From contig CP141148.1 of the NCBI GenBank assembly GCA_035235625.1, positions 5,017,001-5,081,000 on the forward strand: DNA of 64,000 bases, given 5' to 3'. Below are positions 27,491 to 61,885 of the stretch, in pieces; the first letter of the stretch is position 1; each line of letters begins with the position of its first letter. Under the pieces are notes generated by a model. The model was given only the letters and a program-made list of their open reading frames with translations. It was not told where the DNA came from and did no database searches. Made by a program: the position numbers and the translations under genes. Source of the stretch: Saururus chinensis (Eukaryota; Streptophyta; Magnoliopsida; Piperales; Saururaceae).

Positions 27491-28939
27491 ATGGGTTCAT
27501 CAGCTCAACAGCTTCATGTCTTCTTCTTCCCATTCATGGCGCATGGCCACATGATACCCATGATAGACCTGGCCAAAGTCTTTGCTTCTCGAGGTGTCAA
27601 GGCCACCATCATCCTCACCCCCCTCAACGCCTCCATCTCGGAGAACTCCATCAATCAGTTCAGCAAGGCCGGCTACTCCATCCAGATTCAGCCCCTCAAC
27701 TTCCCAAGCCCGGCCAGAACCGGATTGCCGGAGGGAGTCGAGACAACGGACTTCGTCACCTCTCAGGAAGACAGCGATATGTTCTTTGCTGCCCTTCCAC
27801 TTCTAGAGCAGCCTTTCCATGACCTTGTCCAAGAGCTTCTGCCGGACTGCATCTTCTCAGACATGTTCTTGCCATGGACAGCCAACGTCGCCCACAGCTT
27901 TGGCATCCCTCGCCTGGTCTTCAATGGATTTAACTATTTTTCTCTCTGTGCCTTAAATTCTATTGCGAAATTCAAGCCAGAGAAGAATATGGAGTCAGAC
28001 ACAGAGCCCTTCATTGTCCCGGGCCTTCCTGACCCCGTCGTCATAACAACAGCCCAGATGCCTGATGTGATCGGGAACTCAGCCGTCATGGCCAAGTTAA
28101 TGGAGAAAATTTATGAAGCGGAGAGCAAGACGCATGGAATTATCATTAATAGCTTTGTGGAGCTGGAACCGGCCTATGTGGAGCAATTAACCAAGGTGTC
28201 AGGAAAGAAGTCATGGCATGTTGGCCCTTTGTCTCTCTGCATCAAAGGAAACGCAGAGATGATGAGTGGAAGAGGGAAGAAGTCTTCAATCAACCCTGAA
28301 GATTGCTTGAGCTGGCTAAGTAAGAAGGAGACAAGCTCAGTATTGTATGTTTGCTTTGGGAGTTTGTGCAAGTTTACGGCTTCACAGCTTGTTGAAACAG
28401 CAGTAGCTCTTGAATCATCTGGGGTCTCATTCATATGGGTGGTGAAGAGCAGTGAAGTCCTACCTGAGGGATTTGAAGAAAGAAGAGAAGGGAAGGGATT
28501 AGTAATTAAGGGATGGGCTCCTCAGCTCCTGATACTCGGCCATCCTGCTGTGGGAGGATTTGTGACCCACTGTGGCTGGAATTCTGCACTGGAGGGAATT
28601 AGCTCAGGCCTGCCGATGATCACTTGGCCGGCATTTGCAGAGCAGTTTTTTAATGAGATGCTGATTACGCAGGTGTTGAGGGTGGGAGTTGGGGTTGGAG
28701 TGAGGAGGTGCAAGTGGGAAGAAGTGATTAAGGCAGAGTTGGTGAAGAGCGAGGCAATTGAACAGGCTATAAGCAGAATTATGGGAGATGGCGAGGAGGC
28801 TGTAGAGATGAGGAGGAGAGCCAAGGAGCTGGGAGAGATGGCCAAGGAGGCCGTTGAGGAGGGTGGCTCATCTTACTTGGATGTTGGTTGCTTGATTGAG
28901 GAGCTGAAGACCATCAGCTGCAACAAGGCGGCCGGATGA
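27491..28939 (+). CDS. UGT-2: UDP-glycosyltransferase, UGT73 type (group D)
   Basis: Full-length 482-aa, intronless glycosyltransferase, the only intact plus-strand UGT in the window. His20 (HGHMIPM) and Asp124 (SDMFLPWT) form the catalytic pair. The 44-residue PSPG box is residues 342-385 (28514-28645), with HCGWNS at 360-365 and Gln385 at the end, which usually indicates UDP-glucose. It has NSALE where most UGTs have NSTLE. Starting from ATG at 27491 (MGSSAQQ) it aligns with UGT-1 without gaps to about residue 406. Compared with UGT-3 it lacks one codon near residue 407 and has Cys there instead of Trp. A 74-codon upstream open frame (27213-27437) ends 53 bp before the start; copy 2 lacks its ATG. 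Predicted cytosolic secondary-metabolite or hormone glucosyltransferase; acceptor unknown. Confidence 0.95.
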   Translation: MGSSAQQLHVFFFPFMAHGHMIPMIDLAKVFASRGVKATIILTPLNASISENSINQFSKAGYSIQIQPLNFPSPARTGLPEGVETTDFVTSQEDSDMFFAALPLLEQPFHDLVQELLPDCIFSDMFLPWTANVAHSFGIPRLVFNGFNYFSLCALNSIAKFKPEKNMESDTEPFIVPGLPDPVVITTAQMPDVIGNSAVMAKLMEKIYEAESKTHGIIINSFVELEPAYVEQLTKVSGKKSWHVGPLSLCIKGNAEMMSGRGKKSSINPEDCLSWLSKKETSSVLYVCFGSLCKFTASQLVETAVALESSGVSFIWVVKSSEVLPEGFEERREGKGLVIKGWAPQLLILGHPAVGGFVTHCGWNSALEGISSGLPMITWPAFAEQFFNEMLITQVLRVGVGVGVRRCKWEEVIKAELVKSEAIEQAISRIMGDGEEAVEMRRRAKELGEMAKEAVEEGGSSYLDVGCLIEELKTISCNKAAG

Positions 28940-29339
28940 GCCAAATGTGGTGCAAGCGAAAAACTGCAAGTCTGCTACTTTGTTTCCTTGTTCATTGGAA
29001 AAGAAAAAGATAAAAAGTATAATATTCCTTCTTTGCATATCCTCACGAGACATTGACCATGCCCTCTTAATTTTGTTACTTATGCGGACGAGACGTGGTG
29101 AAGCAACAAGATCAAGGTCAATAATTTAAAAAATTTATGATTAGGTCTTTGACTTAGTCGAAATTTTAAATTTATGATTTTTATATTTTATAATATATCC
29201 TATTTTTATATTTAAAATATAAAAAAATTATTTAAATAATAATTAAAAAAATATATTATCAATTTGGTGTTGTTTTTTGCCATGCAGTGCCAGCTAAGCA
29301 ATTGGTGTATGCGTAATATTTTAAAAAAAAAATTTATAT

Positions 29340-29619
29340 GATTTTATCTTTGAGAGTAACAAAATCAGATTTAAGTTGATTTCGTGGTTTAACGTTTTAT
29401 AAGACTTAACCCGATTTTGTCCTTTAAAATGATAAAATCAACTTAAGGCGATTTTATCCTTCTAAACGACAAAATTGCTACATTTAGGCAATTCGGGCCG
29501 TTAGATTCTGAGAGCTAAAGACGGTTTCATCCTTTTAAAGGACGAAATCACGTAACTTTGCGACTCTAGGCCAGTTAAGCGGCTTATGTATTGATTTTAT
29601 CCTTTAAAATGATGAAATC
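29340..29619. repeat. Array of five 27-nt self-palindromes downstream of UGT-2
   Basis: Units at 29340-29366, 29413-29439, 29450-29476, 29523-29549 and 29593-29619 are each exactly 27 nt: an arm like GATTTCGTCCTTT, a central base, and the inverse arm AAAGGACGAAATC, with TG/CA-type changes at the CpGs. Start-to-start distances are 73, 37, 73 and 70 nt, close to multiples of about 36. Four of the five positions are preserved in copy 2. Function unknown. Confidence 0.8.
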
Positions 29620-29642
29620 AAATTAAAATATTTTTAAACTAA

Positions 29643-30068
29643 GGGGGCATTTGGCAAACAATTTGAAGTAGAAAGAAAATAACTTTATAAGAGAATTAAT
29701 TTTTGACAAAAAAAAGTAAACGTTTGGTTAGGGTTTTTTTTGGATAATTTTAAAAAGAAATCAAATTTAAGCTCACTTTTAATTTTTATGTAAAAATAAC
29801 AAAAATACCCTTTAATACTATGGGTAAAATGTATTTGATTAATAGGTAAAACGTCTTTTCACGCCTTTTTAAACCAGAAAGCGAGAGGTGAGTTCTTGAA
29901 GAAATCAAATTTTGGGTCAATTCGGTTTGAATTGACCCAAAAGTTGACTTTGTTGGGAAAACCATTTTAATGCTAAATGACCTTTCCATATGGTTTTCAG
30001 CTCAGAAAGCGATTTTTAACCTAAACAAATCACTTTCCACTCATAAAATCTACCTCCCAAACGAGCCC
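29643..30068. mobile_element. Tourist-like (PIF/Harbinger) MITE
   Basis: A 426-bp element with terminal inverted repeats GGGGGCATTTGGCAAAC (left) and, inverted, GGGCTCGTTTGGGAGGT (right), flanked by a TAA duplication (29640-29642 and 30069-30071). The duplicated block at 61756-61758 has the unoccupied TAA site with matching flanks, proving insertion after (or loss since) the UGT-2/UGT-3 duplication. Confidence 0.9.
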
Positions 30069-30279
30069 TAACTTTAACACCTGTCCCTATTTATTCATTC
30101 AATACATACACAATTTCATTCATTCCACATATTCTATGCATAACAAAGATAACATTAAATTTATTTACATTAACTAATAAAAATAAACATAAAATAAAAA
30201 TATTTATCAAATATATTATATCACATGTTAATAAAATGTTTAGTTTAAAATAAACATATAATAAAACTAATGACACGGT

Positions 30280-30868
30280 CTCCTACGTCCTCAACCTTGG
30301 CCTCGACCTCGACGGTGCTATACGAGCTCCTCCTCATGATCTGCCTGCTCCGGCTCTAGCTGTGGCTCTGGCTCCTGATGTGGCTCCGGCTCAGCATAAG
30401 TAATAGATGGTTCAATATGAGCTAGTCGATGTCGTCTATAATATAAAATCGAATATGGTTGAGCTACATGTGCAGTGAAGGAAATGATAAACGAGGAGGA
30501 GAGCTATGTGCTGCTGATGAAGATAGAATATCAGGGAATGAATCGTGCATCGACTGTGCCTGAGTGGCCTCGTCGATAGGATAATCTCTATGAACATCTT
30601 TAATCATGGACTGAAGCAGTGACAAGCTACGAAGGACATCATCATGCTCCCTAAGCATCAACTGACATAATGCTAACAAGTCCTCACCCAAAGTAGAGGT
30701 GTTAATTGTGCCAGTCAAATGCGCATATGTACGTCGAACTAGACGAAGCTGTAAAATAAATAAATTAAAGATTAGATAAATAATAAATAAAAAAATAATA
30801 TGTGTCTTAATTAACAAAGTTATACTTACCAAAGCTGCCTTAGACGCACCCCTAGGCTGATATGTCAT
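30280..30868 (-). pseudogene. C-terminal gene remnant, possibly plant-mobile-domain (MAIN-like) protein
   Basis: On the minus strand the frame begins MTYQPRGASKAAL, is interrupted by a clean GT-AG intron of about 80 bp (about 30750-30828), and continues LRLVRRTYAHLTGTIN through HDDVLRSLSLLQSMIKDVH. Further on are EPEPHQEPEPQ-type acidic repeats and a broken Arg/Gly-rich tail, as at the C terminus of transposon-associated plant-mobile-domain proteins. Stops separate the tail from the body. The N-terminal domain is absent; the junction with the Copia element is at about 30869. Family assignment is tentative. Confidence 0.35.
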
Positions 30869-30872
30869 CTCA

Positions 30873-31586
30873 ATTATTGTTGAATGGGGTGGTGGAAAGA
30901 AATAATAGAATTATTGTTGAAATGGCAAAATCAATGCTCCATGATAAGGAAATGCCTAAATCATTTTGGGGATAAGCAGTGTATACGGCGATCTATTTAA
31001 TGAATAGATGTCCAACAAAGGTGGTGGAAAATAAAACACCATTTGAAGCTTGGAGTGGAAGAAAACCTTCGGTGAATCACTTAAAAGTATTTTGTTCTAT
31101 TTGTTTTACTCATGTCCCAAAAGAGGTGAGACACAAACTTGATGAAGCTAGTGAAAAATGCATCTTTGTAAGTTATAGCTCAAAATCAAAGGGCTATAGA
31201 CTCTTTAATTTGAAGAGAAACAAAATAATTATTTGTAGAGATGATCTCTTTAATGAGAAGGCCTCTTGGGATTGGAAAGAGAAGAAGATTCAAGAGAAAA
31301 TTATCCCTATCAATGAAGAATTAGGGAATCAAGAAAATAAAGATGTCCAAAATACTCTACAACAAAGTTCTCCAAATGCTAGTTCTCAAGTATCCTCAAC
31401 TTCTACAAGTTCAACACCGACAAAAATGAGAAGACTTAGTGATGTGTATACAAGTTGTAACTTTTGCCTTGTTGAACTGAAGAGCTTCGAAGAAGCAATT
31501 AAAGAAGAAGCATGGATAAAAGCCATGTAAGAGGAAATTCACGTGATAGTGAAAAATAGAACTTGGGAGTTGGTGGAGAGACCTAA
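30873..31586 (+). pseudogene. Copia integrase C-terminal part and start of reverse transcriptase
   Basis: The frame reads EMAKSMLHDKEMPKSFWG, stop (TAA at 30973-30975), then YTAIYLMNRCPTKVVENKTP, GRKPSVNHLKVFCSICF and SKGYRLFN, typical of the Copia integrase core and C-terminal region. It continues into the linker and the start of the reverse transcriptase (FEEAIKEEAWIKAM), a stop at 31528-31530, and NRTWELVERP, where the nested element interrupts. Coding resumes at 34920. Confidence 0.9.
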
Positions 31587-34500
31587 TGTCACGACCCGGA
31601 TTTTTTTAAAGCATTTTTAAATAGCACGAACGGTAGGTAAATTTTTTTTCTTTAAATACAAAACAAATCCTTCGATTAAATATCCAGGTCATGATAACTG
31701 GGGTTCACAAATACGAATATCAAATCATATGATATTATTTAACATCTGACAATTTATAAAGACCAGCTCATCCATCTAAGTACAAGTCTGTCACCCGTCT
31801 GAAAATAAATAACAAGTTGACTCTCACGTTTAAGGCACACTTACGTATCGGAGTTTCAAAAATGCGAAAACCTCTTGAGCTCGCCAGCCTTGGTGTCACT
31901 TGTCGTCGCCTGGAGAATCTGCAATAAAGCAAACCAAACAACAACCACAACCACAATGGAGCATCTTCGCCTTCAGGAGAAGAGCTTCCAAAGGACAAAA
32001 GGTTTTATTAGTATTATTCGGATCGGGCCAACATCACCCGATGTTAGTTGCCTACGTACTCATCAGACAACATCTCCAATGTTTCCAACAAGATCGGATC
32101 CAGACGTAGTTCTGCCTAAAAACTACACTATACTAAGAAGCATAGCATCACCCATGCAATGCTTAAGTATTTTCAATCAACCTACATTTTATGCAAGTCC
32201 TTTAATCGTTCCACTTGTTCTAATTAAACAAGCAATATCAATCAATGTTATTAATTATTTCTCGAACCATTGTTCGATAATTAATATTCCCGTCTAATCC
32301 CAAAGACAGACAGACACATCAGATGTCAACCTAAGTGACAAATGATAAGAAACACCCTGGAATCCACCAGGCCCCTGGAATCCACCAGGAAGTGCCATCT
32401 CCCAACCTAGCCCATAAGGACCTGACCGGAGTGGAAGGGCATGGCCCACAACTGCACCTGAACAGAAGTGGTCAGAGATGCCAACCAAGCAGGATGTCAG
32501 CGACCCTAATTGCGTGTACACTAAAAGATCCTCAATAGATCTGCGGTGAGCCCGGCTCACAAAGAACTCCCTCCAATGGGGAGGTGTAACTACACGGTCA
32601 AATCAACGGCTCCTCAATAGAGCTAGAACTCAGGAAAGCATTCTGAACCCTATCCTGCTCATCTATAAGCCAGGATTCCGAATAACTATCCCAAACCCTA
32701 TTAGTCCTTTCTAGACTAAGGTTTACAACTCGAGACATGCCATCGGTTCATCAACCAAGGCAAATCGCCAGGTCAAAGGCTTTGTTCACTGTATGAACTA
32801 GTCCCAGACCCCTCTGAGGTATTTTAGTCTTTATCTTGATTAGGTGTTCTTGCCTAATCCAAAGCTATCAAACCCCAAATAATTATTCTTTCAATAATTT
32901 TCAACTAGTGATAAATTACTATCACAACATCAATATCAAAAATTGAAACAAAGAACAACATAAACAGTTAGAACCACAAAGGTCCAAGCAAATCATAATA
33001 TCAATAATAAAATTCATTAATGATATAAGAATTATTCGAGCTCTCGTGCCCTAACCCTCCTTGGGTTATCTTAATAAATCTTTATAAAACTGGTCGTAAT
33101 GCACCTAAGGGCATTAGAGTAATTATCCAACATAGGATACAGTCCTCTCAGCACTTGGGTAAGTCTTTAACCTCTTAAAAGATTTTAATATCACCTTGGC
33201 CCGTTAACAACATCCACGTGAATGCGGGCAAGTTTGCATAGGAGTATTTCTGTCATTTGGTTTAAGGCCTTAATGATATCCAATGGGTCTAAAATTCAAC
33301 TCAAGGGTAATACTGGCCTTCATGGACTCTATGTAATTTTCTTGGCATGTAACGGGGTCATGAACCCCTTAAACCGACCCAGGTTTGCTTAACGGTTTAC
33401 TATAAACCCTAAGGACAAAAGAGTCAATTATCCACTCACTGAGATTTTTCCTCACTAAGTGGTTTGGCCTATAATTAGTTTACACATTAAACTATCACTG
33501 AGAATTTTTCCACTTTTTAGATCAACTCATAGGCCTTTGAACCGGAGCCTCTAAATCAGGTAAGTGATTTTCACACGATAACTTAACTACTAAGGGTAAA
33601 AAGGTCATTTCACAATCTCTGGGATTTTTCCCCAAGCTGAAACTAGGTCAGAATAATCCCAAACCTCTCCAGGTCCAATAATAATTTTTAAGGATTTTTT
33701 TGATACAATTAACCCCCTGAACCGGACCCGGTTCTGAGAATATAAATTATGTTTTTTTTTTTAAACAGGACCGGACCGGATCGGGTTTGGTCACCCGACC
33801 CGGTCCAGGGAGCAGACGACCCACTAGGGTCGTCTTCCCCGCGACCGGCCAGAGGCCGAACGGCCTCTGGCGGCGCCGCTTTTCCCCCCAGGCGTCCCGG
33901 CGGGCGAGGCCGAGGCAGGTCGGATCGCCGTCGCCCGGCGAATCCGACGGACTCGGCCTTGCCTCCGTCCGGTGGCTGGCCGGAGACAAAGCGGCCACTT
34001 TTTATTTCTTTTATACTGTGCGACAGTGACGCGACGGCAAGCCGCCTCTGCCGGACGGTGGCCTTGCTTGACCGGATCTCCATCGTCCGGCGATTCCGGG
34101 AAGCCAAGTCCCTACTCCGGCCGGGCTGCGCCGCGCCGCCACCACAGTGTTCTCTTCTCTGTCTCTTTTTTTTTTTGCAACGATCTGGCGGCCAGCACAG
34201 CGGCAGCCGAGTTTGCAGCCGCCAAGGCTTCGCCGGAGCAAGGGGCCGCCGCGGCCAGAGTCAGGGACGCCGAGGCCAGGCCAGGGCCACGGACAAGGCC
34301 GTGGCCGCCCTTGCTTACGACCGAACCCAACTGTTCATGCGAACAGTTTGTGCATAAATTACTTTTAATATTATGCTGAGTAAAATAAATTAATGAATTC
34401 CCTACAATTTCAACTTGAAATCTCACCTCAACGGTTGAGTTTCTGTCGATCTACCGCTGCCGGAGCTCTGTCAGACCCTCGCCGGAGCTTCGCCTTTCAC

Positions 34501-34919
34501 CGTCTTCTCTCCTTTAATCGGGCAAAGACCCCTATAAAAGCCCTTATTAATTCTATTTATAGGCATGGGATTAGGAGCCCTAATCCCAAGAGAAATTGAG
34601 TCCCAAAAACCCAATTTCGGAATGCTAAATAATCGGGCCCTCAAAACGACTTAAACGGCCCTATTGCACGTTTAATTCGGGTAAATGGGTCCTACACGAT
34701 ATATTCAACTTCAGACGGTCGTTTCTCCCTCATCCGGACTCCGATTCGCGCGTTCTTGGTGGCGTTTCGAAGCTCTTTCTGTCTACTTTCCAATAGAATT
34801 AGTTTCAGCCCCAAATTATATCTAGAGAGAAAGTTATTTTAATAAGAATGTCAATAGGTCAAACACCATAATTTCTATGTATTAAAATTTCGAAACCCGG
34901 GAAAATTAGGGATATTACA
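31587..34919 (-). mobile_element. Solo-LTR-like element nested in the Copia
   Basis: TGTCACGACCCGG at 31587 and GGGATATTACA at 34919 bound 3333 bp, flanked by a perfect CCTAA duplication (31582-31586, 34920-34924). Removing it rejoins the Copia reading frame (ELVERP before, [10 protein letters not shown] after). It shares GGATCGGGCCAAC and GTTGCCTACGTAC markers with 8098-10258. A GC-rich core is at 33780-34320; open frames there carry no domain. No internal second LTR or pol was seen. Confidence 0.9.
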
Positions 34920-36342
34920 CCTAAAGAAAAGAAGTCATTGGTGTGAAGTGGATATACAAAACAAAACTCAATCCGGATGGTTTAATTCAAAAGCACAAAG
35001 CAAGATTAGTAGCTAAAGGGTATTCTCAACAACCCGGAGTTGATTTTCAAGAGACATATGCACCGGTTGCTAGACTTAAGACAATTAGAGTTCTCATTAG
35101 TTTAGCGGCACAAAAAGGTTAGTCCTTATACCAACTTGATGTGAAATCGGCTTTCTTAAATAGTATTTTAGAAGAAGAGGTTTATGTGGAGCAACCTCAA
35201 GGCTTTGTAGTGAAAGGTAAACAAGACAAAGTATACAAGTTAAGAAAGACTTTGTATGACTTAAAACAAGCACCCCGATCATGGTATAGAGGGATTCATT
35301 CTTATTTCAAAGAAAGAGAATTTGAAAAAATAAAAGTGAGCCAACCCTATATGTGAAGACTCAAGGTAATTCTAATATTCTCATTATTTCTCTTTATGTT
35401 GATGACATAGTGTTTACTGGAAGTGATAGTAAAATGATTAAAGATTTCAAAAGAGATATGATAAGCAAATATGAAATGAGTGACTTGGGTTTATTGCATT
35501 ACTTTTTGGGGTTGGAAATCAATCAAAATGTTGATAGTGTGGCTATTTGTCAAAAGAAGTATGCAAGAACTCTTCTTGAAAAGTTTAAAATGAAAGATTG
35601 CAATCCGATTGATACACCATTGGTTGTGAATGAAAAATTTTCAAAAGAATACGGAAGTAAAGAAGTTGATAGTACTCTTTATAAAAGCTTAATTGGAAGC
35701 TTATTATACTTGAGGGCTATAAGACCGGACATCACATATGCTTCTAACATATTGGCAAGGTTCATGGCTAAGCCAAGTCAAATTCATTTTGGAGTGGCCA
35801 AGAGAGTATTGAGATACATTCAAGGTATTATTGATTATGGAATTTTCTATAAGAAAAATGTCAATGAAAAATTAATTGGATTTTGTGATAGTGATTGGGC
35901 TGTAAGTGTTCATTACATGAAGAACACTTCTGGATATGCTTTCTCTCTTGGATCGGGTGTCTTTTCATGGGCTTCAAAGAAGCAAGATAGTTTGCATTAT
36001 CTTCTGCCAAGGCTTAATATGTTTCCGCCTGAATTGAAACTACTCAAGCAATATGGTTGAGAAGAATCTTAAATGATGTGGGAGAAAAAACAAGACAAAG
36101 CTACTTCACTTATGTGTGACAACAAATCGGCAATTGCAATGGCAAAGAACCCTATCTTCCATAGTCGAACAAAGCACATTGCAATTAAGCATCACTTCAT
36201 TAGAGAAGCAATTGAAGATGAAGAAATAGAGCTCAAGTTTTGTAAGACACAAGATCAAGTAGTGGATATTTTCACTAAAGCACTTCCAAGAGATAAGTTT
36301 ATTTATTTTAGAAAAATGTTAGGTGTTCAAATATGTCTTTAA
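34920..36342 (+). pseudogene. Copia reverse transcriptase and RNase H
   Basis: Reverse-transcriptase motifs in order: [57 protein letters not shown] and the catalytic YVDD at 35395-35406, followed by SDLGLLHYFLGLEI. RNase H: GFCDSDWAVSVHYMKNTSGY, LMCDNKSAIAMAKNP and HSRTKHIAIKHHFIREAI. Defects: TAG at 35120-35122, a frameshift near 35345, and a scrambled stretch near 35980-36070. Overall close to the Copia consensus, so the damage looks moderate in age. Confidence 0.9.
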
Positions 36343-36349
36343 AGGGGAG

Positions 36350-36584
36350 TGTTAAAATGTAATGACTTATGAGGGCATTTTGGGTACTCTACTCTCTAGG
36401 GTAATGCTCTAATATGTAAGGCTCGTTGGGCACAAAAAAGATACTCTATTTTTTCAACAAAACATCCCCCTCCTCTTCTCCATAAAAGAAGTTTATTGTC
36501 TTCTATGAAAAATTGCAACTTTCTTATGAAAATCTATTTTGCTTCATTCTTAAATTATGCATAGCCTTGTATCTCAAGCCAACA
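36350..36584 (+). repeat. Copia 3' LTR
   Basis: Starts TGTTAAAATGTAATGACTTA right after the polypurine tract and ends CAAGCCAACA at 36584; 235 bp. The next base begins UGT-4 sequence (CAGGAAGACAG). Confidence 0.75.
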
Positions 36585-36585
36585 C

Positions 36586-37233
36586 CAGGAAGACAGTGAT
36601 ATGTTCTTTGCTGCACTTCCACTGCTAAAGCAGCCTTTCCATGACCTTGTCGAAGAGCTTCTGCCAGACTGCATTCTCTCTGACATGTTCTTGCCGTGGA
36701 CAGCCAACGTCGCCCACAGCTTTGGCATCCCCTGCCTGGTATTCAATGGAATAAACTATTTCTCTATTTGTGTCTACAACTGTATTGATAAATTCAAGCC
36801 ACAGAAGAATATGGAGTCACACACAGAGCCCTTCCTTGTCCAAGGCCTTCCTAACCCCGTCGTCCTAACAAAAGGCCATGTACTTCTTGTGAACTCAGTC
36901 ACCGTGCTCAAGTTATTGGAGAAAATTAATGAAGTGGATAGCAATACCTATGGGATGGTTATTAACAACTTTGTGGTGCTGGAACCTGCCTATCTTGAGC
37001 ACTTAACTAAGGTGTCAGGAAAGAAGTCACGGCACGTTGGCCCTTTGTCTCTCTACACAAAGGAGACGCAGGGAATATGAGTGGAAGAGGGAAGAAGTCT
37101 TCCATCAGCCTTGAAGAGTGCCTGGGCTGGCTAAATAAGAAGGAAACAAGTTCAATCTTGCACGTTTGCATTGGGACCTTCTGCAAGCTTTCCACTTCAT
37201 AGCAAGTTGAAATAGCAACAGCTCTTGAAATCA
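36586..37233 (+). pseudogene. UGT-4: truncated UGT73 fragment
   Basis: Covers roughly residues 92-311 of UGT-2. It starts at QEDSD beside the Copia LTR, keeps the catalytic-Asp motif SDMFLPWT, then diverges (QGLPNPVVLTKGHVLLVNSV). A one-base deletion near 37058 shifts the frame and gives a stop at 37078-37080; homology continues in another frame (KKSSISLEECLGWLNKKETS) with a further stop at about 37199, and ends at CTCTTGAAATCA where a palindromic element begins. The N-terminal catalytic His and the whole PSPG box are absent, so it cannot be active. It resembles UGT-2 and UGT-3 more than UGT-1 (KNMESHTEPF against KNMESDTEPF) but is older than their split by its divergence. Confidence 0.9.
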
Positions 37234-54178: not shown

Positions 54179-54520
54179 CTTCAGCATTTACAAGAAATTC
54201 GTAAAGCCGGTTTCTTCAACAACTGGTTGTTCTTCTCATTTTTCAAAGCAGAGAAACGCGAGGTCTTAAGTCCTGTCTATTTATCTGTGACGAAGAAGCC
54301 TCTCTTTTTTCTATCATATTCTCTCTCGGTCTCGTCTCTGAAGAAGTGAGTTTTTGTCTTTCTGGGTTGTATTTCAAACAGGAAAAAAAGGGATTCTTAG
54401 ATTCGGTTTCTTGGGTGGATCTATTCTGAGAAGGGAAAGATTGAGTTGGGTTGTTTGTAATTAAACAACGCACTCAGGCCAGGGGGTGTTCACCAGGTAT
54501 TTTTCAGTTGGAGTATAACA

Positions 54521-55971
54521 ATGGGTTCATCAGCTCAACAGCTTCATGTCTTCTTATTCCCATTCATGGCGCATGGCCACATGATACCCATTATAGACCT
54601 GGCCAAAGTCTTTGCTTCTCGAGGTGTCAAGGCCACCATCATCCTCACCCCCCTCAACGCCTCCATCTCGGAGAACTCCATCAATCAGTTCAGCAAGGCC
54701 GGCTACTCCATCCAGATTCAGCTCCTCAACTTCCCAAGCCCTGCCAGAACCGGATTGCAGGAGGGAGTCGAGACAACGGACTTCGTCACCTCTCAGGAAG
54801 ACAGCGATATGTTCTTGCAGCCCTTCCACTTCTAGAGCAGCCTTTCCATGACCTTGTCCAAGAGCTTCTGCCGGACTGCATCTTCTCAGACATGTTCTTG
54901 CCATGGACAGCCAACGTCGCCCACAGCTTTGGCATCCCTCGCCTGTTCGTCAATGGATTTAACTATTTTTCTCTCTGTGCCTTAAATTCTATTGCGAAAT
55001 TCAAGCCAGAGAAGAATATGGAGTCAGACACAGAGCCCTTCATTGTCCCGGGCCTTCCTGACCCCGTCGTCCTAACAAGAGCCCAGATGCCTGATGTGAT
55101 CGGGAACTCAGCCGTCATGGCCAAGTTAATGGAGAAAATTTTTGAAGCGGAGAGCAAGACGCATGGGATGATCATTAATAGCTTTGTGGAGCTGGAACCG
55201 GCCTATGTGGAGCAATTAACCAAGGTGTCAGGAAAGAAGTCATGGCATGTTGGCCCTTTGTCTCTCTGCATCAAAGGTGACGCAGAGATGATGAGTGGAA
55301 GAGCGAAGAAGTCTTCAATCAACCCTGAAGATTGCTTGAGCTGGCTAAGTAAGAAGGAGACAAGCTCGGTATTGTATGTTTGCTTTGGGAGTTTGTGCAA
55401 GTTTATGGCTTCACAGCTTGTTGAAACAGCAGCAGCTCTTGAATCATCTGGGGTCTCATTCATATGGGTGGTGAAGAGCAGTGAAGTCCTACCTGAGGGA
55501 TTTGAAGAAAGAACAGAAGGGAAGGGATTAGTAATTAAGGGATGGGCTCCTCAGCTCCTGATACTCGGCCATCCTGCTGTGGGAGGATTTGTGACCCACT
55601 GTGGCTGGAATACTGCACTGGAGGGAATTAGCTCAGGCCTGCCGATGATCACTTGGCCGGCATTTGCAGAGCATTTTTTTAATGAGATGCTGATTACGCA
55701 GGTGTTGAGGGTGGGAGTTGGGGTTGGAGTGAGGAGGTGGAACAAGTGGGAAGAAGTGATTAAGGCAGAGTTGGTGAAGAGCGAGGCAATTGAACAGGCT
55801 ATAAGCAGAATTATGGGAGATGGCGAGGAGGCTGTAGAGATGAGGAGGAGAGCCAAGGAGCTGGGAGAGATGGCCAGGAAGGCCGTTGAGGAGGGTGGCT
55901 CATCTTACTTGGATGTTGGTTGCTTGATTGAGGAGCTGAAGACCATCAGCTGCAACAAGGTGGCCGGATGA
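54521..55971 (+). pseudogene. UGT-3: frameshifted UGT73 duplicate of UGT-2
   Basis: Begins like UGT-2 (MGSSAQQLHVF, His20 present) but a single-base deletion at about 54813-54818 (TTCTTTGCTG became TTCTTGCAG) ends that frame after 104 codons at 54835. The remaining codons (Ala101 to the end, 55971) are open and near-identical to UGT-2, including Asp124 and the PSPG box (55543-55674). An alternative upstream frame is open from 54451 and runs through the deletion into the UGT frame, giving a 506-aa frame whose first ~125 residues are out-of-frame translation and lack the catalytic His. The last PSPG residue is His (CAT at 55672-55674) where UGT-1 and UGT-2 have Gln; CGWNT replaces CGWNS. Most likely a recent pseudogene; a sequencing error at the deletion is the main alternative. 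Confidence 0.9.
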
Positions 55972-56799
55972 GCCACATGTGGTGCAAGCGAAAAACTGCA
56001 AGTCTGCAACTTTGTTTCCTTGTTCATTGGAAAAGAAAAAGATAAAAAGTATAACATTCCTTCTTTGCATATCTTCACGAGACATTGGCCATGCCCTCTT
56101 AATTTTGTTACTATGCGGACTAGACGTGGTGAAGCAACAAGATGAAGGTCAATAATTTAAAAAATTTAGGATTAGGTCTTTGACTCACGGTCTGTTTGTT
56201 TACTTTAATCAGATCTTAGCTGATTAAGTATTTATAAGTAAGGTAAAAGCCGCTGTTTGTTTTGAACTTATCTCTGAGCTGATTAAATTGAAAAATAAGC
56301 TCACGTTATTTATTTTGTCCACGAAATAAGATGAGTTTTGCCGGCTGATTTGCTGAAAATCCCCTCTTCCATCCTTCGCCTACCATATTCCATGCTGAAG
56401 CCCTCTCTCATTTCTACCTTTATAGTTGAAGCCTCCTGCAAATCATCCATGGACGAACCTGGCTTTCCCCCTCGTCATCTCCGTCATTGTCCCATCTCCC
56501 CAACGAATCGTTGTTCCTGCCAATTGAAGAACTGCATGAAGGAGTACAGTCTAGCTCCTCTTTCCACACTGGATTCACCGCCATTTCGGAAAGCCGTCGC
56601 TCACTGTAGACAGTTCCGGGAACCTCTCTGCAGGACACGGGGAAATCGAAGGCGAAAACTGGAGAGGGTATTTTTCTGTCCAACCCCGACTGCCCAACCA
56701 TCTCTGAAGCCCTTTCCACGGCGTCGCCTTGCACCTTCGACTTTGTGCACTGCCTGATTCTTCCCGGATTCGTCTCGATTGTTCATCCAGCATCTCCAT

Positions 56800-57578
56800 A
56801 TATTGTATAGAAAGGCAATGTTTTGCCAGAGACGACCGGAGATTCATCTTTTTGCTGCCAGATTCAAGGAACAAAGTGGTGACACTTCTGGTGCACGTGC
56901 TGAGTATCAGCTTTTGCATACTGAGCTATCTCCTGGTTTACTGGAAGCTCTAATAAAGCATGCGAATATGAAAAACCGAATGGTAAGGCCACTTGTGTAC
57001 CTAGTTTTTTTTTGGTGGAAAGTTTGTCTAATTTACTTGATTTGGTTCTTATTATCGTTGCGCAGGGGGAAAAGGAGGCTGCTTGTTCATTATATGAGGA
57101 TGCTATTGCCATTGAACGGCAAAAAGAAGGATCCCTGATCTTGCCTAGTCTCTATGTCCAGTATTCTAGGTTTCTCTTTCTGGTAAGTCTTAGCAGTCAA
57201 CTGCTATTTGGTTTGGTGGTTGAGTTGAAGTTTATGCTGTAAATTTTGTTAGAACTTCATTATTCTCCTAATTAAAATATAAAATTGCTCCATTCAACTT
57301 ATTTATTTACTTATTCTTAGGTGCTGCAAATTGCACCTGGATGTGAGTAGCATTTTGCGGTTAACACAATCTACATTAGCTTATAAAAAAATTAATACGT
57401 TGCATTTCAATACAAAAATTTTGAGTGTTTATTCTATACAATTTTTGTTTGTTGGTGCAGTTATCTTTTTTTTGTAGCGTTGGGCTGTCTGTTTTAGGTT
57501 GCTAGAAATGTTGATAAGGCCAAAGAAGTTTTAGATGGGGCCCTTGAGCATGTTCAGTTATCAAAGCCATTGCTGGAG
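56800..57578 (+). pseudogene. PRP39: Captured PRP39 (pre-mRNA-processing factor 39) exons
   Basis: Three consecutive exons with intact GT-AG borders: about 56800-56982 ([20 protein letters not shown] through [11 protein letters not shown]), 57066-57182 ([20 protein letters not shown] through YVQYSRFLFL) and 57498-57578 (VARNVDKAKEVLDGALEHVQ then LSKPLLE). PRP39 is a U1 snRNP-associated HAT-repeat protein acting in 5' splice-site recognition in the nucleus. Only about 120 aa of the HAT-repeat region are present; no start, N-terminal part or C-terminal half is visible, so this is a fragment. The codons are undisrupted, suggesting recent capture. Bases 56338-56757 upstream hold a 139-codon frame with no recognisable domain. 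Confidence 0.8.
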
Positions 57579-58597
57579 GTTTGTCCTCTCTGGCCTTTAG
57601 TGGACAATTCCATGTCCTTGTATGAGATGATAGACTAATTTTCTATTGCTAATGGTCAGTTTATATTACAGTAGAAATGCAACATTAATGTTCAAATGAC
57701 TAACAATGTAACATAATTCTATACATACAGAGGATCCTAATATGTCTTTGTTCAAGCGGATTGACTATCTAGATTCACTTGTGGAGAAATTTATAACTTT
57801 GCAGCCAGATAATTTATTTCTTGTTGGGCAACAAGGAAATCCCATATACACAAGATGAGTGTTGTATTGATGTGAATATTACCGAGAATCATAATAGAAT
57901 GACCACACAAGAACCCAGGAAAATTGCCAGCCTGTCATGATTGTAAAATATATGAAATGAGCATAAGCAAATGGAAGACATAATCTGGTGGTACAAAATT
58001 TGTGTTCTTTTGAAAGTGTAATATAACCTAAACTCATTGATTTATCAATTTCTGACTCTTTGTCCTGTATTGCATATTAGAGTTGCAGCTGTTTTTGTCT
58101 TTGTATCTTTTTCTTCACTGTTAAGCATAGCTGGATTACCTGCTCATGTAAAAGAAATTCAGGTATCCTATTTGTGTTGGATTAGCGATTCATATCTCTG
58201 CCATGGATCTTCTAATTGTTTTGATGGGCTCTAAGCTCCATCTCTTTGAACATTTCTTTTTTATCTAAGATTGGCTGGAAAAGATTGGTTTTTTTGTCTC
58301 AGATTTTGATTGGGCGATGCTGGTAGGTGGAAATGATTTCTCCTGATTGCCTTTCCATTTTTTCTTTTTTAGGTTAGTAATTAAGTGCTCCACTGTACTG
58401 CTTTTTTTGCCTGAATTGTGGTTATTTTCTCCTTTTTTTAATCATTTTGCCTGATTGTTGTGTCACGATTGATTGCTTGGGGTTTTTGTGCTGTGCTTAT
58501 TGCTAATTACTGTCTCCCTCTTTGCTATTTTTAGCATCATGCTGTATCTAATCATCCTCCCTTGTCTAGAAACCAAGTTTTCTTTTTTTAACTTCAG

Positions 58598-60299
58598 CCC
58601 TGGAAATGATTGTGTCTGTTCTAACTACACAGCAGGTTCAGGTGGTGCTGGTCCTACAATATTGGCAACCAGTTTTTTGCTCCTTGGAGAACATGTTATT
58701 GTTTATAATAAAGGTGCTTTTGCATACATTTTCCAGTATTCTGTTAAATGCTTTCTCAAGCACATAGCTCTTGTTACCAAATCACAAGACACTCTTCCTT
58801 TGGATTTTTAATCAGGAGAAAAGATCAAATTAAAGCCTTACAGTGGAGTCCTCAACATTGACTTTGGAAAAGGGATTGGAAAGAGAGACGTTTATTTGCT
58901 GTAAGTCACATTTTAAGTAGAACTTGCATCCATACATTGTTTTAAAAAAAAAACTGCTATCAAACATATTGTTTCTTGTTTATCAAAAATGTTGTAGCTT
59001 TCAAGTGACAGCGATTAGCAATCTAATTTATGTCGATAATGATATGTCCGTCTCCTTGCTTGATATTCCATCTAATTAAATGTCTGATTTCTTTATCTCT
59101 TCAAGGAGGCTGCTCCTCTTTTGGACATTATCATTTCCTTTTCTCAGTAGTAACTCATTTACAAGTGTAAAATAACTTACATTTCAGTATGAGTGTACAC
59201 GTCTCAACAAAGTTGGTGTCGAGTTTATATTTGAAAACCAGCGAATTTGTTGTTCTTTTTTCAATCTAAGCAGGTTTTGCCTTCTAGACAATGCATTCAG
59301 AAATCGCCAGTTCCCAGCTCTGAAAAGAAAAGTCGCTCATATTCAAGACTTCAATCAATGTAGTGGACCTTCCTGATGGAGAGACACCGGGAATACACAC
59401 TCGGACACTCAATACTCCACACTGTAGTGCTGCGTGCTTAATTAGTACTACTATATTAGTTTATTAAAAGAGCACATAATGCTATGCATTGGCTAAAAGG
59501 ACACTGCCAAATCCCAAATAAATTTTTGGGAGGTTGGGAGGAAACAATAAATATTGCCTGCCATATTATTGTAAGATTATAGAAATTGAATAAAGACATA
59601 GAACTGGTTGGCATTTTGTAACTTGCACGAGACTGATAAGATATCTAGGCAGGTGTGGCTGCTGAAGCAGGAAAATTTACCCCGGAGAGTTTTTTTTAAT
59701 GTTAGTTGTTCACAGTGACCATTTTCAAGATCTAATGCACATTAATACTAATGAGTCCATAATACTATAAGTATTTAAACTCTTATTGAATGAACTCTTA
59801 TAAAATAGTCTGCTTTGCAATGAGCTGGCTATGTCTGGCTTATTGAATGCTCACATTAGACTAGAAAAGTGGTGTTGTAAACTGGTTAAATTATCTATTC
59901 AATTCCATCTTTCAAAACACTGACTGATATTCATATGAGGTGCTTTGGTAAAAATAGCATTGAATTGACTTGGGCTACAATCTTGTGTAGTACGGTTTCT
60001 ATGTGAAAGAATTCTGATGGGAACTAATTTAAAGAATTTTTGTGCACAGCTATACAGTAGAGTTTTTGAAAAAGGAGAAATACAACTACAAAAGTTGTTT
60101 ACTGTAGAAGGAGATTAATTTATGTACGGAGTGCAATTTATATTTTGATTGTAGTAATATGTTTTCTTGGATGGTTCTTATCCAATTCATGATATGTTTC
60201 AGAAACTTACCTGAAGTAAGAAGTGTACATGAGATTTTAGGCATGCCAACTTCGAGTGCTCGTTTTGGTAGTGCACCTGCTTTTGGAATTGGGGAATGA
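58598..60299 (+). pseudogene. Exons of an unidentified captured gene
   Basis: Splice-bordered segments in compatible phase: 58598-58713 (PGNDCVCSNYTAGSGGAGPT through GEHVIVYNK) and 58816-58900 (EKIKLKPYSGVLNIDFGKGI then GKRDVYLL), each preceded by AG and followed by GT. A possible continuation starts at 59274 (FCLLDNAFRNRQFPALKRKV, ending about 59376). A last open segment at 60203-60299 (NLPEVRSVHEILGMPTSSAR then FGSAPAFGIGE, stop) follows a CAG acceptor. I do not recognise the protein. It could be one gene or several captured pieces; a functional chimera with the PRP39 exons is not shown. Confidence 0.4.
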
Positions 60300-61528
60300 T
60301 AGCCATCGCAAATCTTGTTCCAATGGTAATGTTTTAGTTGCTAATAAGCCTCCAAACATATACCATCAATAATTTACTGAATGATTCAACATTCAGTTAT
60401 TTTAGAAACTGTTATTCTTGGGCTGAGAGGAAATTTCTTTCATGTGTAGCATGCATCTCCTAATTAAAAAAAATGCTATCCTTTATAATGTTCAATGATT
60501 TTTATGAGAGCTTGAGTTGGACTGTATCTTTGTTAATTTATATGGTGTATCTTGACCATTGGACATAGCTAGGATAATCATTGGTGAAATAGACTGAAAA
60601 TTGTTATTTCACCGTTTGACATGTTGACTTGGTTAATGAATAATTTATCCTAAATGCATAAAGAATTGTGCTTTGTGCTGCATTGTTGCTGAAGTTGGTA
60701 GCTATGACCAGTAAGACCCTTGCCAATTTTATTTGTGCTTTTATATGCTGCTAACTTATTTTTTGTTCTACATGCATAGTGTTGTACAAGGGACATATAT
60801 TCTTCAATTTGGTTCCAGATATATGTACTGATAAATCTGATCCTATGGCATGTCTTATGGTATCAAAGGGATGGAGGGGGTCGGGCTTGATCGGGCTTTT
60901 TTATTTTATGTGTAATTAGTGTATCAAATATTTTGGCAACAATGTGTAATGACTAATGAGTGATATCAATTGAACACAAGAGATAATTATATTTTTTTCT
61001 TTTTTTTTTATTTTGAAAAGGAATGGATCCCAGAATTAACTGAGGTCAATTTTGTCACGTTGAAGCTTAAATTGAAGATGCAAGTTGCAGTTTTTGATCA
61101 TTTATGAACGTCCTAGCCAGTTTATAAACGTCTCTTGATTCCAATTTAAATTTAGCTAATTTAGCTCCAGATTCAGTTTCAGATTAGCTAATTCAATTTC
61201 AGATTCAGCTAAATTAGATAATTAACTTTTCAGCTAATTAAGATAACTTTTCAGATTTAGATTCAACCGAAACAAACGGACCCTTGGTCAAAATTTTAAA
61301 TTTATGATTTTTATATTTTATAGCATACCCTATTTCTATATTTAAAATATGAGAAAATTATTTTAATAATAATTAAAAAAATATATTATCAATTCAGTGT
61401 TGCTTTTTGTCATGCACTTGTCAACTAAGCAGTTGGCGTATGCACAATTTTTTTTAAAAAAAAATTTATATGATTTCGTCATTGAATTAAATTGATTTCG
61501 TGGTTTAACGTTTTATAAGAATTAACCT

Positions 61529-61735
61529 AATTTTGTCCTTTAGAATGATAAATTCAACTTAAGGCGATTTTGTCCTTTTAAACGATGAAATCGTTGCACT
61601 TAGGCAATTTGGGCCATTAGCTTCTGAGAGTTAAAGACGGTTTCGTCCTTTTAAATGACAAAATCACGTAACTCTGCGACTCTAGGCCAGCTAAGCGGCT
61701 TATGTACTGATTTCGTCCTTTAGAAGGACGAAATC
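61529..61735. repeat. 27-nt palindrome array, copy 2
   Basis: Units at 61529-61555, 61566-61592, 61639-61665 and 61709-61735, in the same order and spacing (37, 73, 70) as units 2-5 of the array downstream of UGT-2. The last unit is almost perfect: arm GATTTCGTCCTTT, central A, arm GAAGGACGAAATC. The first unit is decayed (near 61476). Confidence 0.8.
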
Positions 61736-61885
61736 AAATTAAAACATTTTAAAACTAACTTTAACACATGTCCCTATTCATTCATTCAACACATACACAA
61801 TTTCATTTATTCCACACATTTCATACATAACAAAGATAACATTAAATTTATTTACATTAACTAATAAAAATAAACATAAAATAAA

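What the first reader, a model, noticed from the sequence alone, without database searches (positions are those of the whole stretch)
29340..29619. Phased array of 27-nt CpG palindromes next to UGT genes
Five self-palindromes of identical length (arms like GATTTCGTCCTTT) start 73, 37, 73 and 70 nt apart, near multiples of ~36 nt, and four are preserved at the same spacing in the duplicate (61529-61735). The differences are mostly CpG to TpG/CpA changes, as expected from methylated DNA. Each unit can form a 13-bp stem or bind a dimeric protein. It is not part of a gene, and no feature type I know predicts it. It may belong to a transposon related to the nearby MAIN-like remnant, or be a small-RNA or methylation target.
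Basis: partly seen in the sequence, partly recalled or inferred. Interest (0 to 1): 0.7.

Follow-up and report, generated by a model that had tools for sequence, protein, structure and literature searches.

The report
Palindromic repeat block in transposon remnant
A small cluster of imperfect palindromes beside a plant sugar-transferase gene is real, but it is best read as the decaying noncoding part of an old transposable element rather than a new kind of feature.

Summary
Five related 27-nt imperfect palindromes lie at 29340, 29413, 29450, 29523 and 29593 (spacings 73/37/73/70). Four recur at the same spacings at 61529-61735, with a stub of the fifth. They exceed chance. The units are degraded (8-12 of 13 arm pairs), and the ~36-nt phasing is only suggestive.

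The two copies are one segmental duplication of a UGT gene and its 3' flank. Copy 2 was split by a ~5.1-kb insertion; copy 1 gained a 426-bp Tourist-like element. Transversion rates in element and gene do not differ, but transitions are about 12-fold denser per base in the element, at CG, CHG and CHH sites, as expected of a methylated plant transposon. Only 15 of 65 differences are CpG transitions, although inside the four shared palindromes 8 of 16 fall at the two CpG sites.

Best reading: a noncoding, CpG-rich repeat block of an old element, probably one with a MAIN-like gene (recalled; no Pfam support, and that gene lies outside the shared segment). The units were plausibly protein-binding sites. 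The own-genome search did not complete (13 tries), so copy number and element class remain open.

The parts
29340..29366 (.). palindromic unit 1 (8/13 arm pairs)
29413..29439 (.). palindromic unit 2 (11/13)
29450..29476 (.). palindromic unit 3 (9/13)
29523..29549 (.). palindromic unit 4 (11/13)
29593..29619 (.). palindromic unit 5 (11/13)
29153..29642 (.). old element, copy 1, part shared with copy 2 (61283-61758); its left boundary is not defined
   Evidence: blastn 84.8% over 492 columns; transition-rich divergence
29643..30068 (.). 426-bp Tourist/Harbinger-like insertion in copy 1: TAA on both sides, ends GGGGGCATTTGG / CCAAACGAGCCC; absent from copy 2
   Evidence: read; blastn break; superfamily recalled, not tested
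30069..30198 (.). old element, copy 1, continued (61756-61885 in copy 2)
   Evidence: blastn 93.9% over 131 nt for 30068-30198
30321..30910 (-). possible MAIN-like (PMD) gene C-terminal remnant, two overlapping frames 30321-30503 and 30467-30910; outside the segment shared with copy 2
   Evidence: translation; assignment recalled from the RRHRLAHIEPS/EP-rich tail; no Pfam support
61283..61885 (.). old element, copy 2
61472..61485 (.). left-arm stub of unit 1 in copy 2; a 16-bp gap follows in the alignment
   Evidence: alignment
61529..61555 (.). unit 2, copy 2 (8/13)
61566..61592 (.). unit 3, copy 2 (10/13)
61639..61665 (.). unit 4, copy 2 (10/13)
61709..61735 (.). unit 5, copy 2 (12/13, best preserved, both CpGs present)
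56186..61282 (.). ~5.1-kb insertion between gene flank and element in copy 2; ends GGTCTGTTTGTTT / AAACAAACGGACC; carries a PRP39-like fragment
27491..28939 (+). UGT gene next to copy 1
   Evidence: PF00201, E=5.7e-21
54521..55970 (+). duplicate UGT gene (98.3% identical DNA)

Best explanation
The array is a noncoding repeat block inside an old plant transposable element, probably one that carried a MAIN-like (plant mobile domain) gene whose minus-strand remnant ends just to its right. The block was next to a UGT gene before that gene was duplicated, so both arrays descend from one ancestor (shown). Both copies have since lost cytosines in CG, CHG and CHH contexts, as dense plant TE methylation would cause (pattern shown, methylation inferred). 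When the element was active, the dyad-symmetric, CpG-bearing 27-nt units most likely served as clustered sites for a dimeric DNA-binding protein of the element or host that controlled its transcription or silencing, similar in layout to the tandem motif targets of VANC proteins in VANDAL elements (inferred). I have no evidence of a function in the present remnant.
For: Gene, 3' flank and element are collinear in both copies apart from two later insertions; the pieces were compared separately. Transversion rates do not differ between element (12 of 604) and gene plus flank (21 of 1661), p=0.23, so they fit one age. Transitions number 53 against 12; the ts:tv contrast has p=1.3e-5. C-context changes in the element: CG 15/36, CHG 5/17, CHH 33/125; in gene plus flank: CG 3/80, CHG 2/158, CHH 7/564. 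The array is CpG-rich in AT-rich DNA: observed/expected about 1.6 in both copies against 0.6 for the window. Local palindromes exceed shuffles, and their arm mismatches are mainly single transitions. Published layout parallels: tandem repeats in Tat/Ogre/Retand elements with extra ORFs (PMC7004042 passages; PMC11963269 passages), PMD in 57% of Ogre elements (PMC6317226 passages), and VANC target motifs in tandem noncoding repeats (PMC5735166 passages).
Against: No element ends, LTRs, TIRs, polymerase or transposase were tied to the block, and its genome copy number is unknown (genome search did not complete). The MAIN-like assignment rests on recall: the 148-aa and 55-aa frames match no Pfam family, and the 61-aa frame only two irrelevant ones at E 0.2 and 1.4. 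The MAIN-like frame lies outside the segment shared by the two copies (ends 30198), so its membership in the same element is by adjacency alone. Only one ancestral array is available, so selection on the palindromes cannot be tested. The sharp rise in transitions coincides with the 5.1-kb insertion point, so gene conversion on the gene side is not fully excluded. Protein binding is pure inference.
Confidence: 0.6

Rival explanations
1. Tandem subrepeats without function: the units are by-products of slippage or template switching in the hypervariable noncoding region of a Tat/Ogre-type Ty3/Gypsy element, and their dyad symmetry is incidental. (Shares the TE part of the best explanation, so the odds are not exclusive.)
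For: Such repeats are common in Tat/Ogre elements and family-specific in Retand elements (PMC7004042 passages; PMC11963269 passages). One 37-nt tandem step is scored at 29404-29475.
Against: The 27-nt units are alike while the 43-46-nt spacers mostly are not, which simple tandem duplication does not give. The dyad symmetry was probably better before.
Confidence: 0.25
2. RNA-level element: the block is transcribed past the MAIN-like gene and folds into hairpins that feed small RNAs (self-silencing) or end the transcript.
For: The minus strand folds better than shuffles: z=-6.8 for copy 1 and -3.6 for copy 2. PMD genes of tea plant give 21-nt phased siRNAs (PMC10673657 passages).
Against: For units 3-5, shuffling only the spacers gives folds as stable in 76 and 52 of 300 (copy 1, plus and minus) and 33 and 89 of 300 (copy 2), so the stability comes largely from the palindromes. 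The predicted fold differs between copies. The single Rfam match (MIR403, 23.6 bits, gathering 70) is far below threshold. Two AATAAA hexamers lie before the block, so it may not be transcribed; such hexamers are also frequent by chance in AT-rich DNA.
Confidence: 0.1
3. Subterminal repeats of a DNA transposon (MULE type) that bind its transposase.
For: PMD-C genes occur fused to MULE transposases in some plants (PMC5418596 passages); subterminal motif clusters are usual in DNA transposons (recalled).
Against: I found no TIR, target-site duplication or transposase for this element, but its ends are not defined. The passages read of PMC5418596 mention PMD-MULE fusions for several grasses and Amborella only.
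Confidence: 0.12

Closest known systems
Tandem repeats of Tat/Ogre/Retand Ty3/Gypsy elements between pol and 3' LTR
   Same: noncoding repeat arrays in elements that often carry extra ORFs (PMD in 57% of Ogre, PMC6317226 passages)
   Different: described there as tandem repeats; here the shared part is a 27-nt dyad with unlike spacers, and no Gypsy gene is attached
VANC target repeats of Arabidopsis VANDAL elements
   Same: short motifs clustered in TE noncoding sequence near an accessory gene; the motif regions lose CG methylation when VANC binds
   Different: VANC motifs in the passages read are 8-9 nt in tandem repeats, and 'palindrom' does not occur in that paper's main text; no VANC-like gene is known here
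Subterminal binding-site clusters of DNA transposons (for example TNPA sites of En/Spm; recalled)
   Same: clustered, partly inverted protein sites in noncoding TE sequence
   Different: no transposon ends or transposase found

Membership tests
PMD-bearing Ty3/Gypsy (Tat/Ogre-type) element | PMD (PF10536) gene attached | tested here: inconclusive
   C-terminal frames look MAIN-like by recall; no PF10536 hit; the domain core would lie beyond the truncation near 30970
PMD-bearing Ty3/Gypsy (Tat/Ogre-type) element | Gypsy polymerase and LTRs | tested here: inconclusive
   None among the 16 stop-free frames given to Pfam (two of them overlap; not all frames of the window); polymerase pieces found are Copia-type RVT_2. 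LTRs were not sought beyond blastn of 28901-31600 against the window
PMD-bearing Ty3/Gypsy (Tat/Ogre-type) element | noncoding repeat array near the extra ORF | tested here: met
   array; nearby frame, itself assigned by recall
VANDAL/VANC-type anti-silencing system | VANC gene in the same element | not tested
   no intact element available
VANDAL/VANC-type anti-silencing system | protein binds the motif and removes methylation | not testable with these tools
   needs ChIP or EMSA and bisulfite data
methylated plant TE | excess of C-to-T decay in CG, CHG and CHH contexts against neighbouring gene DNA of the same age | tested here: met

The most novel reading that the evidence does not exclude
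The palindromic CpG array is the recognition platform of the element's own MAIN-like (PMD) protein, which would act as a sequence-specific anti-silencing factor, a parallel to VANC in VANDAL elements. It would give a DNA target to the plant mobile domain, whose function is described as unknown (PMC9289625 and PMC5418596 passages).
Probability: 0.08. Interest if true: 0.75.

Novelty: new member of a known kind. Interest (0 to 1): 0.3.

Why it matters
As it stands it is a clear example of how one part of a gene duplication, a probable transposon remnant, decays at cytosines while the gene beside it does not, with transversions as an internal clock. If intact copies show the same palindromes beside PMD genes, the units would be a concrete candidate target for a protein domain that is common in plant transposons and has no known biochemical activity. 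In four searches of the open library no listed title or abstract start describes palindromic arrays beside PMD genes; one search found no paper with the letters, and one search listed only 10 of 22 papers.

Tried and rejected
Own-genome search with the array was asked 13 times in the same form and never answered, so genome-wide copy number, spacing and unit length were not obtained. Exact-pattern scans of viral contigs and prokaryote genome contigs found nothing; these collections do not hold plant genomes, so this says little. A literature search for the palindrome letters found no paper. A larger inverted repeat centred on unit 4 was considered: spacer 3 against reversed spacer 4 scores well (36 of 2000 shuffles as good in copy 1, 68 of 2000 in copy 2), but it is one of seven pairs tried there and spacer-shuffled folds are similar, so it was not adopted. 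A microRNA reading was rejected (MIR403, 23.6 bits against gathering 70). Independent insertion of two elements was rejected because gene flank and element are collinear in both copies. The 3' flank of the first UGT gene (left of 452) shows only chance-size matches, best E 0.50, but only 451 nt are available. A PDB sequence search of the 30467-30868 frame found nothing.

Full report
Observation. The five units exist where stated: starts 29340, 29413, 29450, 29523 and 29593, each 27 nt, spacings 73, 37, 73, 70; the duplicate holds units at 61529, 61566, 61639 and 61709 with spacings 37, 73, 70 (starts refined). In copy 2 the first unit survives only as its left arm (61472-61485), followed by a 16-bp gap in the alignment. 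A pattern built from the units has 15 matches at 8 sites in the window, all in the two arrays, and none in 100 shuffles (unit 1 is not matched). A test that does not use their sequence, 27-mers with at least 11 of 13 complementary arm positions, gives 15 in the window against 0-2 in each of 10 shuffled windows; only 4 of these 15 are array units, so the window is palindrome-rich elsewhere too. Locally, 29100-29800 has 4 against a mean of 0.15 and a largest of 2 in 200 shuffles; one of the 4 (29201) is an unrelated AT-rich palindrome. The cluster is not chance. The units are imperfect, with 8 to 12 of 13 arm pairs. Over all nine units 27 of 117 arm pairs fail, and 18 of these 27 are one transition away from pairing, against 29% expected (p=6e-5). 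They were probably better palindromes before.

Spacing. A period of 36.25 nt fits the starts to within 1.75 nt; 56 of 5000 random sets of spacings (30-80) fit as well. The period was fitted and the null is my choice, so I treat the phasing as suggestive. The 43-46-nt spacers mostly do not resemble one another in direct alignment (534, 551 and 1034 of 2000 shuffles as good for s3/s4, copy-2 s3/s4 and s1/s4; s1/s3 at 21 of 2000). Within the block only 29404-29475 is scored as a tandem repeat (37 nt, 1.9 copies).

History of the locus. blastn within the window gives three collinear pieces: 28901-29154 with 55933-56185 (96.1%), 29153-29642 with 61283-61758 (84.8%), and 30068-30198 with 61755-61885 (93.9%). 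The UGT genes are 98.3% identical. Copy 2 is therefore the same segment split by an insertion of about 5.1 kb (56186-61282) with inverted ends GGTCTGTTTGTTT / AAACAAACGGACC; it carries a PRP39-like fragment (PF23241, E=3.2e-8, 34.2 bits against a cut-off of 33). Copy 1 carries a 426-bp insertion, 29643-30068, with TAA on both sides and ends that look like Tourist/Harbinger (recalled); copy 2 shows the empty site (read). The two arrays are one ancestral array, not independent evidence of conservation.

Decay. In the aligned shared element (604 columns; the last piece overlaps the array piece by four copy-2 bases) there are 12 transversions; in gene plus 3' flank (1661 columns) 21. The rates do not differ (p=0.23; the 214-nt flank alone has 5), which fits one age. 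Transitions are 53 against 12, about 12-fold denser per base; the ts:tv contrast has p=1.3e-5. By context the element changed at CG 15 of 36, CHG 5 of 17, CHH 33 of 125; gene plus flank at CG 3 of 80, CHG 2 of 158, CHH 7 of 564. That is the mark expected of plant TE methylation (established knowledge; not measured here). Inside the four shared palindromes 8 of 16 differences fall in the 16 of 108 columns of the two CpG sites (p=0.0003), and these sites in the nine units read CG 4, TG 5, CA 4, TA 5 and nothing else. The array still has CpG observed/expected about 1.6 in both copies against 0.6 for the window. One caveat: the step in divergence coincides with the 5.1-kb insertion point, so gene conversion on the gene side could contribute; similar transversion rates argue against it.

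What it belonged to. On the minus strand to the right of the block are two overlapping frames, 30321-30503 (RRHRLAHIEPSITYAEPEP...) and 30467-30910, which I recognise from memory as the C-terminal tail of MAIN-like proteins of plant transposons. Pfam gives no support, and a PDB sequence search found nothing. These frames lie beyond 30198, where the segment shared with copy 2 ends, so their membership in the same element is by adjacency. A Copia-type fragment begins at about 30976 (SH3_retrovirus domain; RVT_2 pieces at 35123-36060). Two AATAAA hexamers on the minus strand (30165, 30095) precede the block, so it may be just beyond the transcript; such hexamers are weak evidence in AT-rich DNA. 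Published work: PMD-A clades are exclusive to Gypsy elements and some PMD-C genes are in MULEs (PMC5418596, passages); PMD occurs in 57% of Ogre elements (PMC6317226, passages); short tandem arrays downstream of gag-pol are common in Ogre/Tat elements and frequent in Retand (PMC7004042, passages; PMC11963269, passages). The element class here remains undetermined.

Mechanism. Shown: clustered dyads, CpG-rich, in one old segment with methylation-type decay. Inferred: the segment is TE sequence, and in the active element the dyads were sites for a dimeric DNA-binding protein. The layout recalls VANC targets, short motifs multiplied in noncoding TE regions whose binding removes methylation (PMC5735166, passages; PMC10398659, abstract). 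The authors of PMC5418596 speculate that PMD captured by MULEs serves anti-silencing (passages). RNA hairpins are the main physical alternative: the minus strand of the whole block folds better than shuffles (z -6.8 and -3.6; the plus strand was folded only for units 3-5), but spacer shuffles do nearly as well, and the fold differs between copies.

Verdict. A real, slightly unusual repeat block in a probable transposon remnant; a known kind of feature with an uncommon palindromic form. The decisive genome-wide test could not be run because the tool did not answer in 13 tries.

Noticed in passing
56186-61282: About 5.1-kb insertion with inverted ends GGTCTGTTTGTTT/AAACAAACGGACC carrying a PRP39-like HAT-repeat fragment (PF23241): possibly a gene-fragment-capturing DNA transposon.
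   Followed up: partly
29643-30068: 426-bp Tourist/Harbinger-like insertion with TAA on both sides and an internal 27-nt palindrome at 29913; its empty site is visible in copy 2.
   Followed up: partly
30976-36339: Copia-type retrotransposon pieces (SH3_retrovirus, RVT_2) on the plus strand with other sequence between them; they begin next to the MAIN-like remnant.
   Followed up: no
36565-37077: Frame that looks by eye like a fragment of a further UGT gene; not tested.
   Followed up: no
54451-55971: The duplicate UGT's ATG frame (54521) stops at 54835, and the rest continues in another frame (54451-55971); it may be a pseudogene.
   Followed up: no
window: 11 of 15 strong 27-nt palindromes of the window lie outside the two arrays, against 0-2 per shuffled window: inverted repeats are common in this window in general.
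   Followed up: no
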